A DNA stretch of 64,000 nt from Prauserella marina (GTDB lineage: Bacteria; Actinomycetota; Actinomycetes; Mycobacteriales; Pseudonocardiaceae), in the NCBI RefSeq assembly GCF_002240355.1, contig NZ_CP016353.1, positions 2,902,501-2,966,500 on the forward strand, written 5' to 3'. Below are positions 33,731-41,635 of this stretch, piece after piece (within the stretch, counting starts at the first letter, position 1; each line of letters begins with the position of its first letter). The notes under the pieces were generated by a model, which worked only from the letters and a program-made list of their open reading frames with translations, had not been told where the DNA came from and did no database searches. Position numbers and translations under genes: made by a program.

Positions 33731-35083
33731 ATGTCGACGAATTCCGCGAGCTCCCCACCCAGCCACTCGAAGACCCAGCTCCGGCGTGCCGTGTTGTCGA
33801 GCTATCTCGGCAGCGTCATCGAGTACTACGATTTTCTGCTCTATGCGACCGCGTCGGCGCTGGTGTTCAACAAGGTCTTCTTCTCGGGCCTCGATCCGGC
33901 GGTCGGCACGATCGCAAGCCTCGGCACCTTCACCACCGGTTACCTCGCGCGACCGCTCGGGGGCGTGATCTTCGGACACTTCGGCGATCTGCTCGGCCGG
34001 AAGCGGATGCTCGTCATCACGATGACCATGATGGGCGTGGCGAGCACGATCATCGGATTGTTGCCCACCTATGCGCAGATCGGCGCGCTCGCCCCGATCC
34101 TGCTGGTGTTGCTGCGGGTCACGCAGGGGATCGCGGTGGGCGGCGAATGGGGCGGCGCCGTGCTGATGTCGGCCGAGCACGCCACGACCCGGCGAGGGCT
34201 GTGGGCGAGCTTCACCAACGCCGGCGCGCCGAGCGGCATGGTGGTGTCCACATTGGTACTGACACTGGCGGCCGCCGTGACCACCGAGGAACAGTTCCTC
34301 GCCTGGGGCTGGCGGGTGCCGTTCCTGCTCAGCGTCGTGTTGCTCGCGATCGGCCTTTTCGTTCGGCTGAAGGTCGAGGAGACTCCGGTGTTCGCCGCAT
34401 CGAAACCCTCCCGCGGGTCGGCGCCACTGCTGGAGGTGCTGCGGAAGTACCCGAGAAACCTCCTGCTGGCCGTGGGAGTCGGCTTCGGCGCGTTCGTCGC
34501 ACAGGGAACGCTGACCACGTTCGTGATCGCCTACGCCGTGGAAGCCGGTTTCGAAAGACAGACGGTGCTCAACGCGCTCACCGTGTCATCGGCGGGCGCC
34601 GTGCTCGGCATCATCGGCTATTCCGCGTTGTCCGACCGGGTCGGCAGGAAACCCGTCGTGCTCGGCGGCGCGATCGCCACCGCGGCCGTCGCCTTCGTGC
34701 TGTTCCCGTTGATCGACACCGGTTCCGCGGTGCTGCTCACCGTCGCGGTGGTCCTCGGCCAGTCGGTGGCGCACCCGGCGATGTACGGCCCGCTGGCCGC
34801 CCTCTACACCGAGATGTTCGGAACGAGGACACGCTATACCGGAGCGTCATTGGGCTACCAGATCGCCGGAGTGGGAGCGGGGGTCGGTCCCGTGGTGTTC
34901 GCGAGCATGGCCGGAGCGGGAACCCCGGCGATCTCGGCCGTGATCGCGGCGTGCTGCCTGCTGACCGTCGTGTGCGTGCTGGCGACCAAGGACCGGCACC
35001 GGTCCAGTCTCGCCGACGAGCCCGGTCCTCCGGTGGCGGAGCCGGAGGACCGGGCCGGTCAGGCCAGGATGACCGAGCCGTAG
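33731..35083 (+). CDS. MFS transporter, metabolite:H+ symporter (MHS) family
   Basis: The 450-residue protein has 12 transmembrane helices and clear MHS features: SYLGSVIEYYDFLLYATASA at helix 1, GYLARPLGGVIFGHFGDLLG with the RK(R) loop after helix 2, and RVTQGIAVGGEWGGAVLM in helix 4. Relatives (ShiA, citrate and dicarboxylate porters) import organic acids with protons. Its 3' end overlaps the convergent binding-protein gene by 25 bases. Its neighbours suggest an aromatic or tricarboxylic acid substrate, but this is not proven. Confidence 0.88.
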   Translation: MSTNSASSPPSHSKTQLRRAVLSSYLGSVIEYYDFLLYATASALVFNKVFFSGLDPAVGTIASLGTFTTGYLARPLGGVIFGHFGDLLGRKRMLVITMTMMGVASTIIGLLPTYAQIGALAPILLVLLRVTQGIAVGGEWGGAVLMSAEHATTRRGLWASFTNAGAPSGMVVSTLVLTLAAAVTTEEQFLAWGWRVPFLLSVVLLAIGLFVRLKVEETPVFAASKPSRGSAPLLEVLRKYPRNLLLAVGVGFGAFVAQGTLTTFVIAYAVEAGFERQTVLNALTVSSAGAVLGIIGYSALSDRVGRKPVVLGGAIATAAVAFVLFPLIDTGSAVLLTVAVVLGQSVAHPAMYGPLAALYTEMFGTRTRYTGASLGYQIAGVGAGVGPVVFASMAGAGTPAISAVIAACCLLTVVCVLATKDRHRSSLADEPGPPVAEPEDRAGQARMTEP

Positions 35084-36078
35084 CCGGGAGCTTTGTCGAT
35101 CAGCCCGCTGTCGAGATGGAATTTCGTCGCCGTCTCATACGCTTGCCGCCCGACCTCGGGGCTGGCGGGTATCTCGGCGCGCAGGATGGGCAGCAGCGCG
35201 TCGAGCGCCTCGGGGTTCGACTTGTCGAGGTACTTGCCGAGCAACTCCCTCGCGTGCGCCGGGTCGCCGTGGATGACGTCGAGCGCCCTGGCGATGGCCC
35301 TGTTGAACCCCGCCACCTCGTCCCGCTTGCGTTCCAGCAGTTTCGACGTGCTGAACATGACGCCGTGCAGCGCGCCCCGCATGCTCGGAATGTCGCCCCT
35401 GGCGGGGGACAGGTAGATCCGGCCGGTCCCGGTGGCCTCTGCCTGTTGTCCGATGGGCTGAAAGAAGGCCAGCGCGTCGACCCGGTCCGACTTGAGCGCA
35501 CCGATCGCCGCCGTCGCCGCGCTGCCGAGGTTCACCAGCGTCGAGTCGATGGCCGCGTTGCGGCCGATCGCGTTGAAGAGGTAGTTCACCAGTCCTTCCG
35601 TGCCGGAGCCGGGACCGGTGATGCCGATCCGCTTTCCGACGAGCGCGGCGACCTTGTCCTCCATCGTGGCGTCGTCGCCGGGGCCCTCGAAGTCCGCCGC
35701 GACGATCACGTCGACGTAGTACTCGGTGACCAGGCTCGACACGATCTTCGTTCCGTCGTCGATCCTCGCGAGGTTGAACGCGTCGGTGATGACGCCCGCG
35801 CCGAGGTCGATGCTGCCCGACTTCAGTGCGGCGGCGACCTTCGCGCCGGTACCCAGCCGAGGCCGTTCGCCGAGGGTGAGTCCTTCTTCGGTGAAGAAGC
35901 CCTTGGTTTCGGCGATGTACAACGGGAGGAACGCCACCGAGTCGCTGATCTGTCCGATGTTGAGTGTTCCGGCTGGGGTCGTCGAATGCCGTGTCGCGCA
36001 TCCGGCGAGTGCCGTGCCGAGCAAGGGTGCCGCGACGAGTCCTTTGAGGACGCTCCTGCGGGCGATGCGCTCAGCCAT
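35059..36078 (-). CDS. TauA/SsuA/NMT1-like ABC substrate-binding lipoprotein
   Basis: The 339-residue protein has a twin-arginine-like start (RRSVLKGLVAAP) leading into a lipobox (LGTALAGC). The NMT1/OpuAC-type binding fold follows (LNIGQISDSVAFLPLYIAET, KGFFTEEGLTLG, GSGTEGLVNYLFNAIG). It would bind an anionic solute for the permease and ATPase that precede it in the same operon. It ends within the convergent MHS permease gene. It is the last gene of the DUF6282-GalB-aldolase operon. Confidence 0.82.
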   Translation of the reverse strand: MAERIARRSVLKGLVAAPLLGTALAGCATRHSTTPAGTLNIGQISDSVAFLPLYIAETKGFFTEEGLTLGERPRLGTGAKVAAALKSGSIDLGAGVITDAFNLARIDDGTKIVSSLVTEYYVDVIVAADFEGPGDDATMEDKVAALVGKRIGITGPGSGTEGLVNYLFNAIGRNAAIDSTLVNLGSAATAAIGALKSDRVDALAFFQPIGQQAEATGTGRIYLSPARGDIPSMRGALHGVMFSTSKLLERKRDEVAGFNRAIARALDVIHGDPAHARELLGKYLDKSNPEALDALLPILRAEIPASPEVGRQAYETATKFHLDSGLIDKAPGYGSVILA

Positions 36079-36916
36079 CGATCGGCTTCCATCGGTTGAC
36101 GCGCTTGCTGAGCAAGCCGACGAGCAGGTTCAGCAGCGCGGCGACGATGCTCAGTACGACCAGTGTCGCGAAGACGCCCGCCGTGTCGAACTGCGCGGCC
36201 GCGTCGTTGATCAGGTAGCCGAGGCCCCGGTTGGAGGCCACCAGTTCACCGATCACCGCACCGATGAGCGCGTAGGGAATGGCGACCTTGAGCCCGGTGA
36301 GCAGCCCCGTCATCGAGGAGGGCAGCACCACCTTGCGTGCGATGTGCCAGCGGTTGCCGCCCATCAGCCGCACCGCGTCGACGAGTCCTCTGTCCACATC
36401 GCGCACTCCGGCCGCGGTGTTGAGGAACACCAGGAAGAACACGGTCGCGGCGGCGAGCAGCACCTTCATGTGCATGTCGATGCCGAACCACACGATGAAA
36501 AGTGGCGCCAGCGCGACCTTCGGGATCGAGTAGAGCGCCATCACGAACGGGTCGAGCACGCGGTAGACCAGTGTCATCGAAGCCAGCACGAATCCGGCGA
36601 GCGCGCCCGTCACCGCGCCGAGCAGGAAGCCGTACACGATCTCCTGGATGGTGATCCAGGAGTGCAGCCACAGTGTTCCGTCGGCGATCCATTCGCCGAG
36701 CCGGCTGCCGATGTCGCTGGGCTTGCTGATGAACGTGATGTCGATCCACCTGTCGGCGGCGACCTCCCACAGCACCAGCACGAGCGCGATCAGTGCGACC
36801 CGCGTCGACCAGACCGTTGTGGACGTTCCGTGTTTTTGCCACCAGGTACGGGAGATGGCGACTCTGACCGGTCCGTTGTCGTGCGTGACGGAGGCCAGTT
36901 CGTCGGTGCTGCTCAT
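36071..36916 (-). CDS. ABC transporter permease (TauC/SsuC type)
   Basis: The 281-residue protein has about six transmembrane helices and the BPD_transp_1 EAA-loop region (VDAVRLMGGNRWHIARKVVL, then SSMTGLLTGLKVAIPYALIG). The ATG at 36916 overlaps the ATPase stop, and its own stop overlaps the binding-protein start. It forms the channel of the anion importer. Confidence 0.87.
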   Translation of the reverse strand: MSSTDELASVTHDNGPVRVAISRTWWQKHGTSTTVWSTRVALIALVLVLWEVAADRWIDITFISKPSDIGSRLGEWIADGTLWLHSWITIQEIVYGFLLGAVTGALAGFVLASMTLVYRVLDPFVMALYSIPKVALAPLFIVWFGIDMHMKVLLAAATVFFLVFLNTAAGVRDVDRGLVDAVRLMGGNRWHIARKVVLPSSMTGLLTGLKVAIPYALIGAVIGELVASNRGLGYLINDAAAQFDTAGVFATLVVLSIVAALLNLLVGLLSKRVNRWKPIDG

Positions 36917-37680
36917 CGGGCCCCCTCCTGTAGCGCTTGTGCCAGTTCCGTGTGCAGTGAGACGAATTCGGGGTCGACTCGCAGCGTGTCGGCCGAGCGT
37001 GGCCTCGGCAGGTCGATAGTGCGGTCGAGCAGGATCGCGCCGATCTTGCCGAGTACCACGACACGATCGCCGAGCAGCAGCGCCTCTTCGATGTCGTGGG
37101 TCACGAACACCACGGTCTGCCCGCCGTCCTGCCACAGCCGCAGCAGTTCCTGCTGTAGTTCCATGCGAAGCTGGGCATCGAGCGCGCCGAACGGCTCGTC
37201 CATCAACAGTGTTCCGGGATTGCCTGCCAGCATGCGGGCGAGGCTCGCTCTCCTGCGCATACCGCCGGAAAGCTCGCGAGGGTAATGGTTCTCGAAGCCG
37301 CTGAGCCCGACCCTGTTCACCAGCTCGGCGGCGATCTCGCGCCGTTTCGCCGACGCGACGCCGCGGATCTCCAACGGCATCTCCACATTGCGCAGCACAC
37401 CCCGCCACGGCATCAGCGTGTCGGACTGGGTCAGGTACCCGATCTCGGTGTCCGGTCCGGTCAGCTTGCGGTCCCGGTAACGAACCTCGCCTTCGCTCGG
37501 CGTGGTCAGACCGGCGAGCAGGTTGAGCAAAGTGGATTTGCCACAACCACTCCTGCCGAGCAGCGTCACGAAGCTGCCTTCCTCGATGGAGAGGCTGAAG
37601 TCGCGCAACGCCACGGTGGCCATGTCGTCCTTGGCGAATCGCATGCCAAGGTCCTTTGTCTGCAGAAGGGTACTCATCAT
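36913..37680 (-). CDS. ABC transporter ATP-binding protein (TauB/SsuB type)
   Basis: The 255-residue nucleotide-binding protein has Walker A GRSGCGKST, signature LSGGMRRRASLARM, Walker B GTLLMDEPFGALD and the switch His in VFVTHDIEEAL. It powers the importer with the permease encoded immediately downstream. It starts MMST; the ATG at 37680 overlaps the aldolase stop by four bases. Confidence 0.9.
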   Translation of the reverse strand: MMSTLLQTKDLGMRFAKDDMATVALRDFSLSIEEGSFVTLLGRSGCGKSTLLNLLAGLTTPSEGEVRYRDRKLTGPDTEIGYLTQSDTLMPWRGVLRNVEMPLEIRGVASAKRREIAAELVNRVGLSGFENHYPRELSGGMRRRASLARMLAGNPGTLLMDEPFGALDAQLRMELQQELLRLWQDGGQTVVFVTHDIEEALLLGDRVVVLGKIGAILLDRTIDLPRPRSADTLRVDPEFVSLHTELAQALQEGAR

Positions 37681-38303
37681 CGTGCCCGCTCGTCCTCGGC
37701 GCGCATCCCGTACGCGTCGTAGCTCAGTTCGCCGTTCTCCCAGCGTTTTCTCAGTACGTCTTCTTTGGACAGCCGCTGCCGGACGGCGGCAACGGCGGTG
37801 TCGGCGTCGGCGGAGGCGACCGAGGTCGCGCCGTCGTCGTCCAGTACGACGATGTCGCCTGGCGCGATCGTGGTGCCGCCGATCTCGACCGGAACGTCGA
37901 CGCTTCCCCTCGTGTTCTTGGTCGCGCCGAATGCCCTTCGCCAGCGTGTCCACACCGGCAGTCCCATTTCCGCGAGGTCGGCGCTGTCGCGCACGGCGGC
38001 GTCGACGAGTATCCCCGCCGCCCCCCGCTTTTTCGCCTGGGTCGCGAGCAGGTCCCCGACCAGCGCGACGGGGCGGGGCTCCGGCATCGTCAGTACGAGC
38101 ACTTCACCGGGAAGCAAGCGCGCCATGATCTCGTGAACGGCCCTGTTGTCGTCCTGCCCGCACAACGCGATTCTCGCCGGACCCGCGATCCTCGTCCCGG
38201 GAAGCAACGGTTGCCACTCGACGTCGAGCAGCCCGCGCCTTCCGTACGCCTCGTAGACGGTGGCGACTCCGGCCCCGGCCAGTTCGGCGACCGCCGGGTT
38301 CAC
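37677..38303 (-). CDS. RraA/HMG-CHA aldolase-family protein
   Basis: The 208-residue protein of the RraA fold carries the aldolase-type motif GDLLATQAKKRGAAGILVDA followed by VRD. The Arg-Asp pair binds the divalent metal and pyruvyl moiety in 4-hydroxy-4-methyl-2-oxoglutarate/4-carboxy-4-hydroxy-2-oxoadipate aldolases. With the GalB-like gene directly upstream (GTGA overlap), it probably cleaves carboxy-hydroxy-oxoadipate to pyruvate and oxaloacetate. RraA relatives without aldolase activity exist, so the activity is inferred from context. Confidence 0.72.
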   Translation of the reverse strand: MNPAVAELAGAGVATVYEAYGRRGLLDVEWQPLLPGTRIAGPARIALCGQDDNRAVHEIMARLLPGEVLVLTMPEPRPVALVGDLLATQAKKRGAAGILVDAAVRDSADLAEMGLPVWTRWRRAFGATKNTRGSVDVPVEIGGTTIAPGDIVVLDDDGATSVASADADTAVAAVRQRLSKEDVLRKRWENGELSYDAYGMRAEDERAR

Positions 38304-39016
38304 AGCGCACCCACGACGTTGGGCAGCAGGCGCTGGAATGCCTCGGCCTGGCGGATCTCCGCGTTTCCGGTGACCTTGCGGGCGTGGTTGCCCCTGTGGT
38401 CGGCGCGCTGCGCGTAGTACTCTTGGAGATAACGCTGAGCCGCCATGTGCGACATCGCCTCCACCTTCCGGTCGAAGACAGAGGTGATGTCGACGTACAC
38501 GGTGGGCAGGAACCCGCACAGCTCCGGCTGATGAGGCTCGAAAACGAGGAATTCGGAAGGCGGCGCGGTGCGGAATCCACTCGCGACACCGGCGCCGGAG
38601 GTGAGCAGCCGCGCGCGGGCGACGGCGGCGTGTGCCACGGGGTGATCGGGGTTGAACGGGTCCTTGTCCGGATGCGTCAGCACGACGTCGGGAGCGAAGT
38701 CCCGCATGAGTTCGGCGAGCCGTTCGATCGCGGCGTCGTCGACCCGCAGCGGATAGTCGCCGAGATCGAATCCCTGGAATTCCGCGCCGACGGCCGCCGC
38801 GGCCTTCGTCGCTTCCTCGTGCCGGATCCGTTTGACGTTGTCCTCGGTCTGGCCTTCCCGCTTCCACAGTTCGCCCGATTCGCCGCGCTCGCCGTAGGAC
38901 AACGCGACGACGAGTGCTTCGCCTCCCGCCGCGGTGTGCGTGGCGACGGCACCCGCCGCGCGCCACACGAAGTCGGCACTGTGCGCGCCGACGACCAGCA
39001 ACTTGCGCGTGCTCAT
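38300..39016 (-). CDS. PIG-L-fold hydrolase/hydratase, GalB-like 4-oxalomesaconate hydratase
   Basis: The 238-residue protein of the PIG-L/LmbE fold has a zinc motif AHSADFVWRAAGAVA rather than the deacetylase AHPDD. It continues with LSYGERGESGELW and FDLGDYPLRVDD, and has a second metal region in LTHPDKDPFNPDHPVAHAA. These are the hallmarks of GalB from Pseudomonas gallate degradation, which hydrates 4-oxalomesaconate to 4-carboxy-4-hydroxy-2-oxoadipate. The ATG at 39016 follows GAGGGAG. The neighbouring aldolase uses exactly that product, which supports the assignment. Confidence 0.72.
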   Translation of the reverse strand: MSTRKLLVVGAHSADFVWRAAGAVATHTAAGGEALVVALSYGERGESGELWKREGQTEDNVKRIRHEEATKAAAAVGAEFQGFDLGDYPLRVDDAAIERLAELMRDFAPDVVLTHPDKDPFNPDHPVAHAAVARARLLTSGAGVASGFRTAPPSEFLVFEPHQPELCGFLPTVYVDITSVFDRKVEAMSHMAAQRYLQEYYAQRADHRGNHARKVTGNAEIRQAEAFQRLLPNVVGAL

Positions 39017-39975
39017 GCCGTCTCCCTCTTCGGTGCGTCGGCCAGTGCTTCGGCGCCGACGAGCCACCTGCTGTTGTGCACGATCATGGTGCGGACCTCG
39101 TCGTCGGTGAAGCCACCGGCGAGCAGCCGGTCGGCGGCGAGCGCGAGCCCGTCTTCGACGGGCGGGTTGAACGGTTGCCCGAGGTCACTGGAGACAACCG
39201 AGTTCTCGGGTCCGGCCTCGCGGATGTTGCTCAGCCACAGGTCCCATTCGACTTTTCCGGTGTAGGGGGTGGTGAAGCAGCGTTCGAGCAGCGCGCCGTG
39301 TCTCGCCAGTTCACGCTGCCGCTCGATGCCGACCCGCTGGGAGGTGAATTCCGGATGGGTGACCACGACGCGGCGAACGCCTTCCTCGCGCGCGGCGACG
39401 ACGACCTTCGCGATCTCGTCGGAGTGCAGGTGCCCGGTCGCCAGCGTCATGTCGTGCTTGGCGAGCAGGCGGAGAATCTGCCTGGTCAGCTCGCGCACGG
39501 AGCCGCGCTCGTCGAGTACTTCGACGGGGTCGGCCGCCATCCCTGCCTCGCGGAGTTCCTCCTGGATTTTCGCCCACATCGGCGGGGTCGCGCCCTCGGG
39601 CTCGCTCGCCTGGCACAGTCGCTGGTTCGAACTGTCCACTGTGGGCAACCAGGCGAACCTCGCCCCGCCCCTTCCCGCGATCTCGACGGCGATCGGGTTG
39701 AGGCCGCCGACGGAGGCGTTGAGGGTGATCGCGCCGATCGCCTCGGCGCCTCTTCCCGCGTTGCGAACCACCTCGGCGCGTTCGGCCGTCGAGGTGTAGT
39801 GGGATTTCAGTACGAAGCCCGCCAGTCCCGCCTCGGCGAACCGCTCGGCGAGCGTCAGGTCGTCGATGCGGCGGCGCATCACGTCCGGCGCGATGTGGAC
39901 GTGGACATCGTAGGCGCCCCGTACCAGCTCCTTGCCGTGAGATGAAGGCTGAGGATGCTGGGGATTCTCAGTCAT
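39013..39975 (-). CDS. DUF6282-family amidohydrolase-like protein
   Basis: The 320-residue protein starts with a VHVHIAPDVMRRR metal-type motif (His-x-His), followed by FVLKSHYTST and SVGGLNPIAVEIAGRGG. It ends with SDLGQPFNPP and MIVHNSRWLVG, a pattern of metal-dependent TIM-barrel hydrolases. No activity is established for DUF6282. As first gene of the operon before the hydratase and aldolase, it might open a lactone such as 2-pyrone-4,6-dicarboxylate, but that is inference. Its start has AAAGGAG upstream and a perfect palindrome in the promoter. Confidence 0.72.
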   Translation of the reverse strand: MTENPQHPQPSSHGKELVRGAYDVHVHIAPDVMRRRIDDLTLAERFAEAGLAGFVLKSHYTSTAERAEVVRNAGRGAEAIGAITLNASVGGLNPIAVEIAGRGGARFAWLPTVDSSNQRLCQASEPEGATPPMWAKIQEELREAGMAADPVEVLDERGSVRELTRQILRLLAKHDMTLATGHLHSDEIAKVVVAAREEGVRRVVVTHPEFTSQRVGIERQRELARHGALLERCFTTPYTGKVEWDLWLSNIREAGPENSVVSSDLGQPFNPPVEDGLALAADRLLAGGFTDDEVRTMIVHNSRWLVGAEALADAPKRETA

Positions 39976-40007
39976 GTCGCTCCTTTGCGGCCATTATCTG
40001 AGCCCAG

Positions 40008-40019
40008 ATTGTTAACAAT
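40008..40019. promoter_or_regulatory. GntR operator ATTGTTAACAAT before the DUF6282 operon
   Basis: This perfect 12-bp palindrome lies 33-44 bases upstream of the DUF6282 start, in the 85-base gap after the GntR gene. It matches a second site at 40803-40814 in 9 of 12 positions and fits the GT...AC symmetry favoured by FCD-type GntR regulators. Confidence 0.6.
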
Positions 40020-40060
40020 TTCGTCGTGAGCGTCAACCCCCCTGCGGTCGGCGAACCTGT

Positions 40061-40774
40061 TCAGGGCAGGTGGCGGACCCCGGTTCCGGCGTCGTCCGCC
40101 TCCCGCAGCGCGCCGATGACGCTGCGAAGATGCGCTCGCGCGGCCCGCTCGGCCGCATCGGCGTCGTGCGCGCAGACCGCCTCGATGATGGCGAGGTGTT
40201 CAGGGAGCGAAACGGCCGGCCTGCCGGGGTGCATGGCCAGCTTGAACTGGTGACGGACGCTTTGTGCCCTCAGTCGTTCCAGTACGGCGGTCGCGGTTTC
40301 CTGGTCGGCGATCTCGCGCACGCGGCGGTGCAATCGCTGGTTGAGTTCCGAATAGCCGAGTACGTCGCCGCTCGCCACGGCCGAGCGCATGGCGGTTCCG
40401 ATCGAGGTCAGCTCGCCGATCTCGGCCGAGGTGACTCGCTCGGCCGCTTTCGCCGCGCACAGGCCCTCCAGCACCATCCGCACCTCGCAGATTTCCACAG
40501 CCTCGGCCAGCGAGACGGCCCGCACCCTCGCGCCGCGGTTCTGCATGCGCTCGACGAGCCCTTCGTTGGCCAATTCGAGCAGCGCGGCTCGCACACCTGC
40601 CCTGCTGGCGCCGAACTGGGCGGACAGATCTGCCTCGACGAGCCGCTGATTGGGGACGAACTCACCTCGCACGATGGCCGCGCGGATCGCCACCACCGGG
40701 GACGGTGCGGTCGCCTGCTCTATGGGCGCCGCCCGCCCGCCGGTGCCATCCTGTGCGGACTCACCCTCGGTCAC
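40061..40774 (-). CDS. GntR-family regulator (FCD domain)
   Basis: The 237-residue protein has an N-terminal winged helix (PSPVVAIRAAIVRGEFVPNQ, then LVEADLSAQFGASRAGVRAA) and a C-terminal all-helical FCD domain. The GTG at 40774 follows GGGGAGGA. It lies between two matching 12-bp sites, one before its own and the divergent gene and one before the DUF6282 operon. It likely controls both units in response to an organic acid. Confidence 0.83.
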   Translation of the reverse strand: MTEGESAQDGTGGRAAPIEQATAPSPVVAIRAAIVRGEFVPNQRLVEADLSAQFGASRAGVRAALLELANEGLVERMQNRGARVRAVSLAEAVEICEVRMVLEGLCAAKAAERVTSAEIGELTSIGTAMRSAVASGDVLGYSELNQRLHRRVREIADQETATAVLERLRAQSVRHQFKLAMHPGRPAVSLPEHLAIIEAVCAHDADAAERAARAHLRSVIGALREADDAGTGVRHLP

Positions 40775-40802
40775 GTCGCATCCTCCCCAATCCGTTACAG
40801 AT

Positions 40803-40814
40803 ATTGTCGCCAAT
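40803..40814. promoter_or_regulatory. GntR operator ATTGTCGCCAAT in the divergent promoter
   Basis: This ATTG-NNNN-CAAT dyad lies between the GntR start (40774) and the divergent dehydrogenase start (40856). It shares 9 of 12 bases with the palindrome at 40008-40019. Confidence 0.5.
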
Positions 40815-40855
40815 TTTGTGAGGTAGTGTAGCGGCGCGACCGAGAGGAACGACGA

Positions 40856-41635
40856 ATGAGCAACGAGGCACCTGTCATCGCGGTACTGGGGCTTGGCGAG
40901 GCCGGCGGCGCGATGGCCACGGATCTGGTCGCCGCGGGCGCGACCGTGCGAGGCTACGACCCCGCCGTCGCGGGGCCTCCCGGAGTCGTGGAGACAGGAA
41001 GCGAAGCCGAAGCCGTGACCGGTGCCGTGCTGGTCCTCAGCGTCAACAGCGCCTCCGCCGCGACGGCCGCCCTCGGCGCGGGCATCGCGGCGCTTGCCGA
41101 CGGCGCGCTGTGGGCCGATCTCAACACCGCCTCGCCCGGAACGAAGGAACAACTCGACCGGATGGCCGCCGAACACGGCGCCCGCTGTGTCGATGTCGCG
41201 ATCATGGCGCCGGTGCCAGGAAAGGGACTGCGCGTGCCGATGCTGGCCAGCGGGGGCGGGGCCGCCGAGGTCGCCGCGCTGCTCGGGTCACTCGGTGCGT
41301 CCGTCGACGTGCTCGAAGGAGCGCCGGGACTCGCGGCGAGCAGGAAACTGTTGCGCAGCGTGTTCTTCAAGGGGCTCGCCGCCGCCGTGGTGGAGGCGCT
41401 TGAGGCCGGCAAGGCCGCCGGATGCGAAGAGTGGTTGCGCGACAACATCGTCACGGAGCTCGATGCCGCTGACGAGTCCACTGTGGACCGGCTAGTGAGC
41501 GGCACCAGGCAGCACGCGGTGCGCAGGGCGGCCGAGATGAGCGCGGCCACCGACATGCTCGGTGAACTCGGCGTCGACCCCGCCGTGACCCGTGCCAGCC
41601 GCGATCTGCTCGCCCGGCTCGCCGGATCCCGCTGA
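40856..41635 (+). CDS. NAD(P)-dependent dehydrogenase, 6PGDH-like with DUF1932 domain
   Basis: The 259-residue protein starts with a Rossmann motif (VIAVLGLGEAGGAMATDL) and continues as a hydroxyacid-dehydrogenase-like fold with a DUF1932 C-terminal domain (SRKLLRSVFFKGLAAAVVEA with the conserved Lys, then RRAAEMSAATDMLGELGVDP). It probably reduces or oxidises a hydroxy- or oxo-acid. It is transcribed divergently from the GntR gene and shares its operator, so it likely belongs to the same regulon as the hydratase-aldolase operon. Confidence 0.77.
   Translation: MSNEAPVIAVLGLGEAGGAMATDLVAAGATVRGYDPAVAGPPGVVETGSEAEAVTGAVLVLSVNSASAATAALGAGIAALADGALWADLNTASPGTKEQLDRMAAEHGARCVDVAIMAPVPGKGLRVPMLASGGGAAEVAALLGSLGASVDVLEGAPGLAASRKLLRSVFFKGLAAAVVEALEAGKAAGCEEWLRDNIVTELDAADESTVDRLVSGTRQHAVRRAAEMSAATDMLGELGVDPAVTRASRDLLARLAGSR

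What the first reader, a model, noticed from the sequence alone, without database searches (positions are those of the whole stretch)
35059..40019. Candidate uptake-and-cleavage operon for a 4-oxalomesaconate-type tricarboxylate
One minus-strand operon, with four-base overlaps through most of its genes, encodes a DUF6282 metal-hydrolase-like protein, a GalB-like hydratase, an RraA-fold aldolase and a complete TauABC-like importer. Established gallate and protocatechuate 4,5-cleavage pathways use GalB or LigJ to hydrate 4-oxalomesaconate and an RraA-fold aldolase to make pyruvate and oxaloacetate, but they start from ring cleavage. Here no dioxygenase is present and an importer is included, suggesting the cell takes up a ready-made acid (for example a pyrone-dicarboxylate or oxalomesaconate) and DUF6282 performs the first step. 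That role for DUF6282 is undescribed to my knowledge.
Basis: partly seen in the sequence, partly recalled or inferred. Interest (0 to 1): 0.72.

Follow-up and report, generated by a model that had tools for sequence, protein, structure and literature searches.

The report
Importer operon feeding an aromatic-acid pathway
A tightly packed bacterial operon pairs a nutrient importer with two known enzymes of aromatic-acid breakdown and an unassigned hydrolase (DUF6282) that probably opens a ring-shaped acid; relatives carry the same enzymes beside a ring-cleaving enzyme, which gives this unassigned protein family a concrete, testable job.

Summary
The operon is real: six minus-strand genes (39975 to 35059) overlap by 4, 4, 4, 4 and 8 bases. 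The PIG-L protein is a GalB-type 4-oxalomesaconate (OMA) hydratase (PDB 5cgz, E 3e-59); the RraA-fold protein resembles CHA aldolases. Independent support for OMA: five Nocardiopsis loci carry LigJ, an unrelated OMA hydratase, plus an OMA tautomerase beside DUF6282 instead of GalB. Of 14 early-branching loci, 11 (Thermus, Meiothermus and others) have a catechol-2,3-dioxygenase-like gene and no such importer; of 29 loci in the window's subclade, 27 have the importer and one that dioxygenase. The window's genome has no orthologue of it and no LigAB match. DUF6282 is predicted to be an amidohydrolase. Best reading: DUF6282 makes OMA by hydrolysis, most likely from 2-pyrone-4,6-dicarboxylate, as an unrelated stand-in for LigI. 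The OMA half is well supported; DUF6282's substrate and the imported compound are inferred. New variant of a known kind.

The parts
39013..39975 (-). DUF6282 protein, 320 aa; predicted amidohydrolase-superfamily hydrolase, proposed to make 4-oxalomesaconate (candidate PDC hydrolase)
   Evidence: PF19799 211.9 bits; AF2 model pLDDT 88.4; Foldseek amidohydrolases incl. LigI 4di8 E 9e-6, rank 12; H25,H27,K57,H59,H182,H207,D264 conserved
38300..39016 (-). GalB-type 4-oxalomesaconate hydratase (PIG-L family), 238 aa
   Evidence: PDB 5cgz E 3.1e-59 over residues 5-235 vs MshB 4e-4; PF02585
37677..38303 (-). RraA-fold 4-carboxy-4-hydroxy-2-oxoadipate aldolase (predicted), 208 aa, GTG start
   Evidence: NF006731 179.8 bits vs cut-off 179; TIGR02798 165.5 vs cut-off 304.5, not reached; PDB 3noj E 9e-41
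36913..37680 (-). ABC importer ATP-binding subunit (TauB/SsuB-like)
   Evidence: PF00005; NF008421 215 bits, below cut-off 357
36071..36916 (-). ABC importer permease (TauC/SsuC-like)
   Evidence: PF00528
35059..36078 (-). substrate-binding lipoprotein, NMT1/THI5-like; ligand unknown
   Evidence: PF09084, PF13379; nearest solved 3qsl, an unnamed exported protein
40008..40019 (.). palindromic operator ATTGTTAACAAT, ending 32 nt before the DUF6282 start codon
   Evidence: 1 exact match in 64 kb, 0 in 100 shuffles; 7 sites in the 6.99-Mb genome, control pattern 0; 35 of 36 hits in the 35 named loci lie upstream of cluster genes
40008..40036 (-). sigma-70-like promoter TTGACG-17-AACAAT; the second hexamer lies in the operator
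   Evidence: only promoter-like site found in 34900-41000; 0.3 expected
40061..40774 (-). GntR/FCD-family regulator, GTG start
   Evidence: PF07729, PF00392 (run on 40061-40756); start corrected by reading the frame
40803..40814 (.). second operator, one mismatch (ATTGTCGCCAAT), between GntR and DUF1932
   Evidence: only one-mismatch site in the window; several relatives have an exact site between these two genes
40856..41635 (+). NAD_binding_2/DUF1932 dehydrogenase, divergent; kept in many relatives
   Evidence: PF09130, PF03446; within 8 kb of DUF6282 in 23 of 35 named loci

Best explanation
A GntR-controlled operon that imports an organic acid and converts it through 4-oxalomesaconate (OMA) to pyruvate and oxaloacetate. 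[quoted passage not shown] the RraA-fold aldolase splits CHA to pyruvate and oxaloacetate. Inferred: DUF6282, an amidohydrolase-superfamily enzyme, makes OMA by hydrolysis, most likely opening the lactone 2-pyrone-4,6-dicarboxylate (PDC), so it stands in for LigI without detectable relation to it at sequence level. Inferred: the DUF1932 dehydrogenase makes the DUF6282 substrate, as LigC makes PDC from the ring-cleavage product. In most early-branching relatives that product would come from a catechol-2,3-dioxygenase-like enzyme in the same cluster. In the subclade with the window an ABC importer was gained and the adjacent dioxygenase mostly dropped (direction inferred from the tree), so part of the substrate is taken up instead of made. 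Regulation (inferred): the GntR protein binds ATTGTNNACAAT over the promoter. My split: OMA half 0.88; DUF6282 makes OMA by hydrolysis 0.6, with PDC as its substrate 0.42; import of a ready-made ring-cleavage acid rather than an intact aromatic 0.5.
For: GalB identity: 5cgz E 3e-59. Aldolase: NF006731 just over cut-off, 3noj E 9e-41. OMA as intermediate: in 5 Nocardiopsis loci LigJ (2gwg E 1e-153) and an OMA tautomerase (NF033377 465.5 bits, cut-off 440; one of the five loci, L055, was the one tested) replace GalB beside DUF6282. Of 22 genomes searched (the window's and 21 of the 35 named ones), 20 have a GalB of 44% identity or more (in two only short pieces) and the other two have LigJ. The window genome has a second locus with a GntR 68% like the operon's, an OMA tautomerase (482.9 bits) and a second GalB, with the same operator. 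Complete set in one cluster: dioxygenase, GntR, DUF6282, GalB, aldolase, DUF1932 in Thermus oshimai and Meiothermus, with a 4-hydroxybenzoate 3-monooxygenase-like gene nearby. LigI gap: 5 of the 9 genomes with the dioxygenase orthologue show no LigI match, and none of those nine shows a LigC orthologue (best-scoring match 33% over part of the length). Amidohydrolase fold and metal-ligand pattern. Operator.
Against: No call tests the DUF6282 reaction. Foldseek puts LigI at rank 12 among many amidohydrolases, behind an unnamed Pseudomonas amidohydrolase and renal dipeptidases; profile comparison with three LigI-family sequences gives probability 8%. DUF1932 has no described role that I found (no relevant paper) and is retained in many ABC-type loci, which is odd if PDC itself is imported. 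4 of the 9 dioxygenase genomes do show LigI-family matches: G297 43%, G316 36%, G315 partial, G309 weak. The window genome has a 38% LigI-family protein, whose only NCBIfam match, 4-sulfomuconolactone hydrolase, is far below cut-off (197 of 500). 14 of 35 named loci have no OMA hydratase within 8 kb; 3 of the 14 early-branching loci have no dioxygenase in view (L031, L073, L095; two of them on stretches that end close by). TIGR02798, the narrower aldolase model, is far from its cut-off. Three of the genome's seven operator sites belong to another cluster with its own FCD regulator, so the motif is not exclusive to this pathway; 7 of 35 named loci lack an exact copy.
Confidence: 0.5

Rival explanations
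1. The importer brings in an intact aromatic acid (protocatechuate, gallate, phthalate-like), and ring cleavage is done by an unlinked dioxygenase not recognised here. DUF6282 and DUF1932 still act after cleavage.
For: Six of the nine genomes with the dioxygenase orthologue carry an ABC-type DUF6282 locus with the dioxygenase at another place (G297, G300, G306, G311, G315, G316). The window genome has a divergent LigB protein beside a Rieske oxygenase and an Amidohydro_2 protein at 4.41 Mb.
Against: The window genome has no close orthologue of the relatives' dioxygenase (27% best, and that protein passes the HpaD cut-off) and no LigAB match. It has intradiol dioxygenase genes (PF00775) that could take protocatechuate elsewhere. 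Neither the 4.41-Mb cluster nor the HpaD locus carries an exact copy of the operator.
Confidence: 0.27
2. DUF6282 is a hydrolase for another precursor of OMA: a methyl ester (methoxylated ring-cleavage product), the lactam 6-oxo-1,6-dihydropyridine-2,4-dicarboxylate, or another ring acid.
For: The amidohydrolase fold covers lactones, lactams, esters and amides (families among the matches; range recalled); the importer's substrate is unnamed.
Against: The full gene set in Thermus and Meiothermus maps step for step onto the protocatechuate 4,5 route, and a 4-hydroxybenzoate hydroxylase-like gene sits nearby.
Confidence: 0.25
3. GalB and RraA homologues here do unrelated chemistry (deacetylation, another hydroxy-oxo-acid aldolase), so OMA is not involved.
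For: The PIG-L and RraA families are broad; NF006731 is passed by only 0.8 bit and TIGR02798 ligK_PcmE is far from its cut-off (165.5 of 304.5).
Against: 5cgz match over nearly the full length at 3e-59 against 4e-4 for the deacetylase MshB; LigJ plus OMA tautomerase replace GalB in Nocardiopsis; in the window genome the second GalB sits with an OMA tautomerase under the same operator.
Confidence: 0.06

Closest known systems
Protocatechuate 4,5-cleavage pathway (LigAB-LigC-LigI-LigJ-LigK; actinobacterial form on Arthrobacter keyseri pRE1, and in Pseudarthrobacter Sphe3, PMC8431788, passages seen)
   Same: Final steps OMA to CHA to pyruvate and oxaloacetate; in Thermus and Meiothermus one gene each that could be dioxygenase, dehydrogenase, hydrolase, hydratase and aldolase
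   Different: DUF1932 instead of LigC, DUF6282 instead of LigI, usually GalB instead of LigJ, a catechol-2,3-dioxygenase-like enzyme instead of LigAB, or an importer instead of any adjacent dioxygenase; GntR instead of LysR
Gallate pathway of Pseudomonas putida (GalA, GalB, GalC, GalD; recalled, with the OMA hydratase structure 5cgz)
   Same: GalB-type hydratase and CHA-type aldolase; an OMA tautomerase elsewhere in this genome
   Different: No gallate dioxygenase recognised; DUF6282, DUF1932 and this importer have no part in that pathway as I recall it
LigI, PDC hydrolase (PDB 4di8)
   Same: Amidohydrolase-superfamily barrel (Foldseek E 9e-6); proposed same reaction
   Different: No detectable sequence relation; DUF6282 has conserved His after beta-5 and beta-6 and a Lys/His pair at the end of beta-2
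TauABC/SsuABC-type importers
   Same: Subunit make-up, ATPase and permease similarity
   Different: Below the curated cut-offs shown; lipoprotein only distantly NMT1/THI5-like

Membership tests
GalB-type OMA hydratase | near full-length similarity to the solved OMA hydratase 5cgz, far above PIG-L deacetylases | tested here: met
   E 3.1e-59 over 5-235 of 238 vs 3.7e-4 for MshB
GalB-type OMA hydratase | hydration of OMA | not testable with these tools
   needs an enzyme assay
CHA aldolase (LigK/GalC) | passes a curated NCBIfam equivalog cut-off | tested here: inconclusive
   NF006731 179.8 vs 179: met, narrowly; TIGR02798 165.5 vs 304.5: not met
CHA aldolase (LigK/GalC) | similarity to a solved CHA aldolase | tested here: met
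   3noj E 9e-41; GDLLAT and VRD stretches kept
LigI PDC hydrolase | amidohydrolase-superfamily fold | tested here: met
   predicted model and Foldseek
LigI PDC hydrolase | sequence homology to LigI | tested here: not met
   hhalign probability 8%; so it may work like LigI but is not filed as a LigI
Protocatechuate 4,5-cleavage pathway | ring-cleaving 4,5-dioxygenase | tested here: not met
   none in the operon; no LigAB match in the genome; relatives' dioxygenase orthologue absent
Protocatechuate 4,5-cleavage pathway | OMA hydratase and CHA aldolase | tested here: met
   by homology
DUF6282 (PF19799) | gathering cut-off | tested here: met
   211.9 vs 26.8 bits
Taurine/sulfonate importer | curated cut-offs for TauB, TauC and the SsuA family | tested here: not met
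   215 vs 357; 111 vs 342; 43 vs 163.5

The most novel reading that the evidence does not exclude
A second, independently assembled protocatechuate-type meta-cleavage route: a catechol-2,3-dioxygenase-like enzyme, a DUF1932 dehydrogenase, DUF6282 as PDC hydrolase, GalB and an RraA-fold aldolase replace LigAB, LigC, LigI and LigJ in Thermus, Meiothermus and Actinobacteria. A derived actinobacterial branch, including this window, has swapped the ring-cleaving step for an importer and scavenges PDC-type acids that other microbes release.
Probability: 0.33. Interest if true: 0.74.

Novelty: new variant of a known kind. Interest (0 to 1): 0.6.

Why it matters
It gives DUF6282 (no paper in the held library contains that name) and a DUF1932 clade (two papers hold the word, on bee and wasp venom and on autoantigens) specific, assayable steps. 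It also suggests that PDC-type acids, stable and wanted as polyester building blocks (PMC10233912, start of abstract seen), are taken up by Actinobacteria. That would be a source of PDC importers and alternative PDC hydrolases for lignin work. The shared operator makes the regulon predictable from sequence.

Tried and rejected
Sequence search of DUF6282 against the PDB gave nothing usable (best E 0.01), hence the fold prediction. Idea that DUF6282 in general is tied to galB: rejected; only the window-type clade is. Paracoccus and Roseomonas members sit with TRAP genes or TTT binding-protein genes and citrate-lyase-like genes; the window genome's own second copy has ABC ATPase- and permease-like genes within about 3 kb. 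Idea that the operator marks only this pathway: rejected; three of seven sites lie in an unrelated-looking cluster. Idea that the HpaD-like gene at 1.24 Mb is the missing dioxygenase: rejected; it passes the HpaD cut-off (408 vs 321) beside an HpaE-like gene. Three LigB proteins looked at: one matches 4,5-DOPA dioxygenase only (178 vs 233, below cut-off), one (4.41 Mb) matches 3-carboxyethylcatechol dioxygenases weakly, one matches no NCBIfam family. Literature searches other than those for the two DUF names listed no title describing this gene set; the listings showed 30 of 33, 5 of 5, 20 of 162, 5 of 5, 20 of 48, 1 of 1 and 0 of 0 papers. Only PMC8431788 was opened, by passages. Neighbour counts and the tree rest on my own simple gene caller and identity thresholds. 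Dropped for odd length: L041, L074 and L076 (3 of 57 loci). The counts use all 35 loci, also those cut short by contig ends (e.g. L062, L073).
Full report
OBSERVATION. Six minus-strand genes run from 39975 down to 35059: DUF6282 (320 aa), PIG-L (238), RraA-fold (208), ABC ATPase (255), permease (281) and NMT1-like lipoprotein (339). Overlaps are four bases four times, then eight. Pfam supports every label. Upstream on the same strand is a GntR/FCD regulator (40061-40774; the start was corrected by reading the frame). Divergent from it is an NAD_binding_2/DUF1932 gene (40856-41635).

ENZYMES. The PIG-L protein does not look like a generic deacetylase: its nearest solved relative is the 4-oxalomesaconate (OMA) hydratase 5cgz at 3e-59 over residues 5-235, with MshB at 4e-4. 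The RraA-fold protein passes NF006731 (CHA aldolase) by 0.8 bit, misses TIGR02798 by far, and matches the CHA aldolase 3noj at 9e-41. Of the NCBIfam matches shown for the importer subunits none reaches its cut-off (25 of 187 shown for the ATPase), so the ligand is open.

RELATIVES. A scan of the named genome collection gave 35 DUF6282 loci at 55-80% identity. With my gene caller and thresholds, within 8 kb of DUF6282: complete importer in 27 of 35, OMA hydratase in 21 (GalB 16, LigJ 5), RraA in 20, DUF1932 in 23, GntR in 23, dioxygenase in 5. Importer and dioxygenase occur together in 1 of 35 (L065, Nonomuraea solani). In a separate sample of 296 genomes of the phylum, 18 passed the DUF6282 cut-off, the window's genome (two copies) among them. 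I fetched the surroundings of 18 copies: one from each of the 17 other genomes and the window genome's second copy. Seven of these are window-type (50-60% identity) and all seven have GalB, RraA, DUF1932 and GntR within 8 kb, six with the dioxygenase; the other 11 have none of these, though four of them lie on contigs under 6.3 kb. The tree separates the two sorts (43 rows on one side, support 99/96), with a long-branch warning for several distant rows.

OMA AS INTERMEDIATE. Five Nocardiopsis loci lack GalB nearby but carry, downstream of the lipoprotein gene, an OMA tautomerase, a LigJ-type hydratase and RraA. In the one tested (L055) the tautomerase scores 465.5 bits (cut-off 440) and the hydratase matches 2gwg at 1e-153. 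LigJ and GalB are unrelated proteins for the same reaction, so their exchange beside DUF6282 points to OMA. Of 22 genomes searched (the window's and 21 of the 35 named), 20 have a GalB at 44% identity or more (in G297 and G316 only short pieces). The other two, a Nocardiopsis and an Arthrobacter, have LigJ. In the window genome a second locus at 4.716 Mb holds a GntR 68% identical to the operon's, an OMA tautomerase (482.9 bits) and a second GalB.

OPERATOR. ATTGTTAACAAT lies at 40008-40019, the only exact ATTGTNNACAAT in 64 kb (0 in 100 shuffles). It overlaps the only sigma-70-like site found in 34900-41000. A one-mismatch copy lies between GntR and DUF1932 (40803-40814), where several relatives have an exact one. 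In the 35 named loci, 28 carry the motif, and 35 of 36 hits lie within 300 nt upstream of a cluster gene; about 0.025 hits were expected from base composition, and a reversed control pattern gave 0. The genome has seven sites: this operon, the 4.716-Mb OMA locus, three at 5.606-5.612 Mb in a cluster with another FCD regulator, and two others whose surroundings I called but did not annotate. So related FCD regulators seem to share the motif, and it is not proof of one regulon.

RING CLEAVAGE IN RELATIVES. The conserved extra gene passes the catechol 2,3-dioxygenase model in both proteins tested (329.8 and 331.3 bits, cut-off 320.2). On the Thermus oshimai plasmid the order is dioxygenase, GntR, DUF6282, PIG-L, CHA aldolase, oxidoreductase (DUF1932 by my search), with a 4-hydroxybenzoate 3-monooxygenase and a ring-hydroxylating dioxygenase nearby; Meiothermus has the same genes. 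On the tree, 14 rows of the window-type clade branch outside the 29-row subclade that holds the window. Of those 14, 11 have the dioxygenase and none the importer; the three without (L031, L073, L095) include two stretches that end soon after DUF6282. Of the 29, 27 have the complete importer and one (L065) the dioxygenase nearby. Of 22 genomes searched, 9 have a dioxygenase orthologue (49% or more) somewhere; the window genome has none (27%) and no LigAB match, although it has intradiol dioxygenases and three divergent LigB proteins.

DUF6282. The model (pLDDT 88.4) matches amidohydrolases, LigI among them at rank 12. H25, H27, K57, H59, H182, H207 and D264 are kept in all 12 distant members and in 42 or 43 of 43 clade members; S58, C233 and K241 are invariant in the clade and differ in most distant members. 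HxH on strand 1, His after strands 5 and 6, and Asp after strand 8 is the usual amidohydrolase metal pattern (recalled). Profile comparison shows no sequence relation to LigI. Of the nine dioxygenase genomes, five have no LigI match, two have near full-length family members (43% and 36%), one a partial and one a weak match. None has a LigC orthologue. A protocatechuate-type route that reaches OMA with neither LigC nor LigI needs another dehydrogenase and another lactone hydrolase, and two unassigned genes of those general kinds are present: DUF1932 and DUF6282. That is the argument; it is inference, not demonstration.

READING. The downstream half is well supported. PDC as the DUF6282 substrate is the most economical choice, not a proven one. 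Import in the window's branch is shown by gene content only; what is imported is not known. The retained DUF1932 gene argues that either the imported acid needs oxidation first, or the genome still makes some substrate itself.

NOVELTY. No paper in the held open library contains 'DUF6282'; seven other searches listed no title with this gene set (three of these listings were partial). I call it a new variant of the known OMA pathways.

Noticed in passing
G000:C1:4715334-4717889 (L111:7334-9889): Second OMA locus in the same genome: GntR 68% like the operon's, OMA tautomerase, second GalB (47%), operator ATTGTTGACAAT just upstream.
   Followed up: partly
G000:C1:5604150-5614078 (L127, L128): Three copies of the same operator at promoter positions in a cluster with another FCD regulator, two arylmalonate-decarboxylase/EutA-like proteins, an amidase, a 2-hydroxyacid dehydrogenase, a class III aminotransferase and a DUF3830 protein: an unassigned catabolic regulon.
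   Followed up: partly
G000:C1:4413004-4418767 (L138:3004-8767): Divergent LigB dioxygenase beside a Rieske oxygenase, an Amidohydro_2 protein, an FAD hydroxylase and an IclR regulator; the LigB and Rieske proteins are far below NCBIfam cut-offs, so possibly an undescribed ring-cleavage pathway.
   Followed up: no
G000:C1:2730819-2731418 (L001, L040): Second, distant DUF6282 (about 30% identity) with ABC ATPase- and permease-like genes nearby; substrate unknown.
   Followed up: no
window 33731-35083 +: MFS symporter most like metabolite:H+ and shikimate transporters (below cut-off), convergent with the operon's end; may carry a related acid.
   Followed up: no
L097:3060-8619; L098:4334-10262: In Paracoccus and Roseomonas, DUF6282 sits with citrate-lyase-like aldolases and TRAP transporter or TTT binding-protein genes, suggesting a wider role of the family in carboxylic-acid catabolism.
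   Followed up: no
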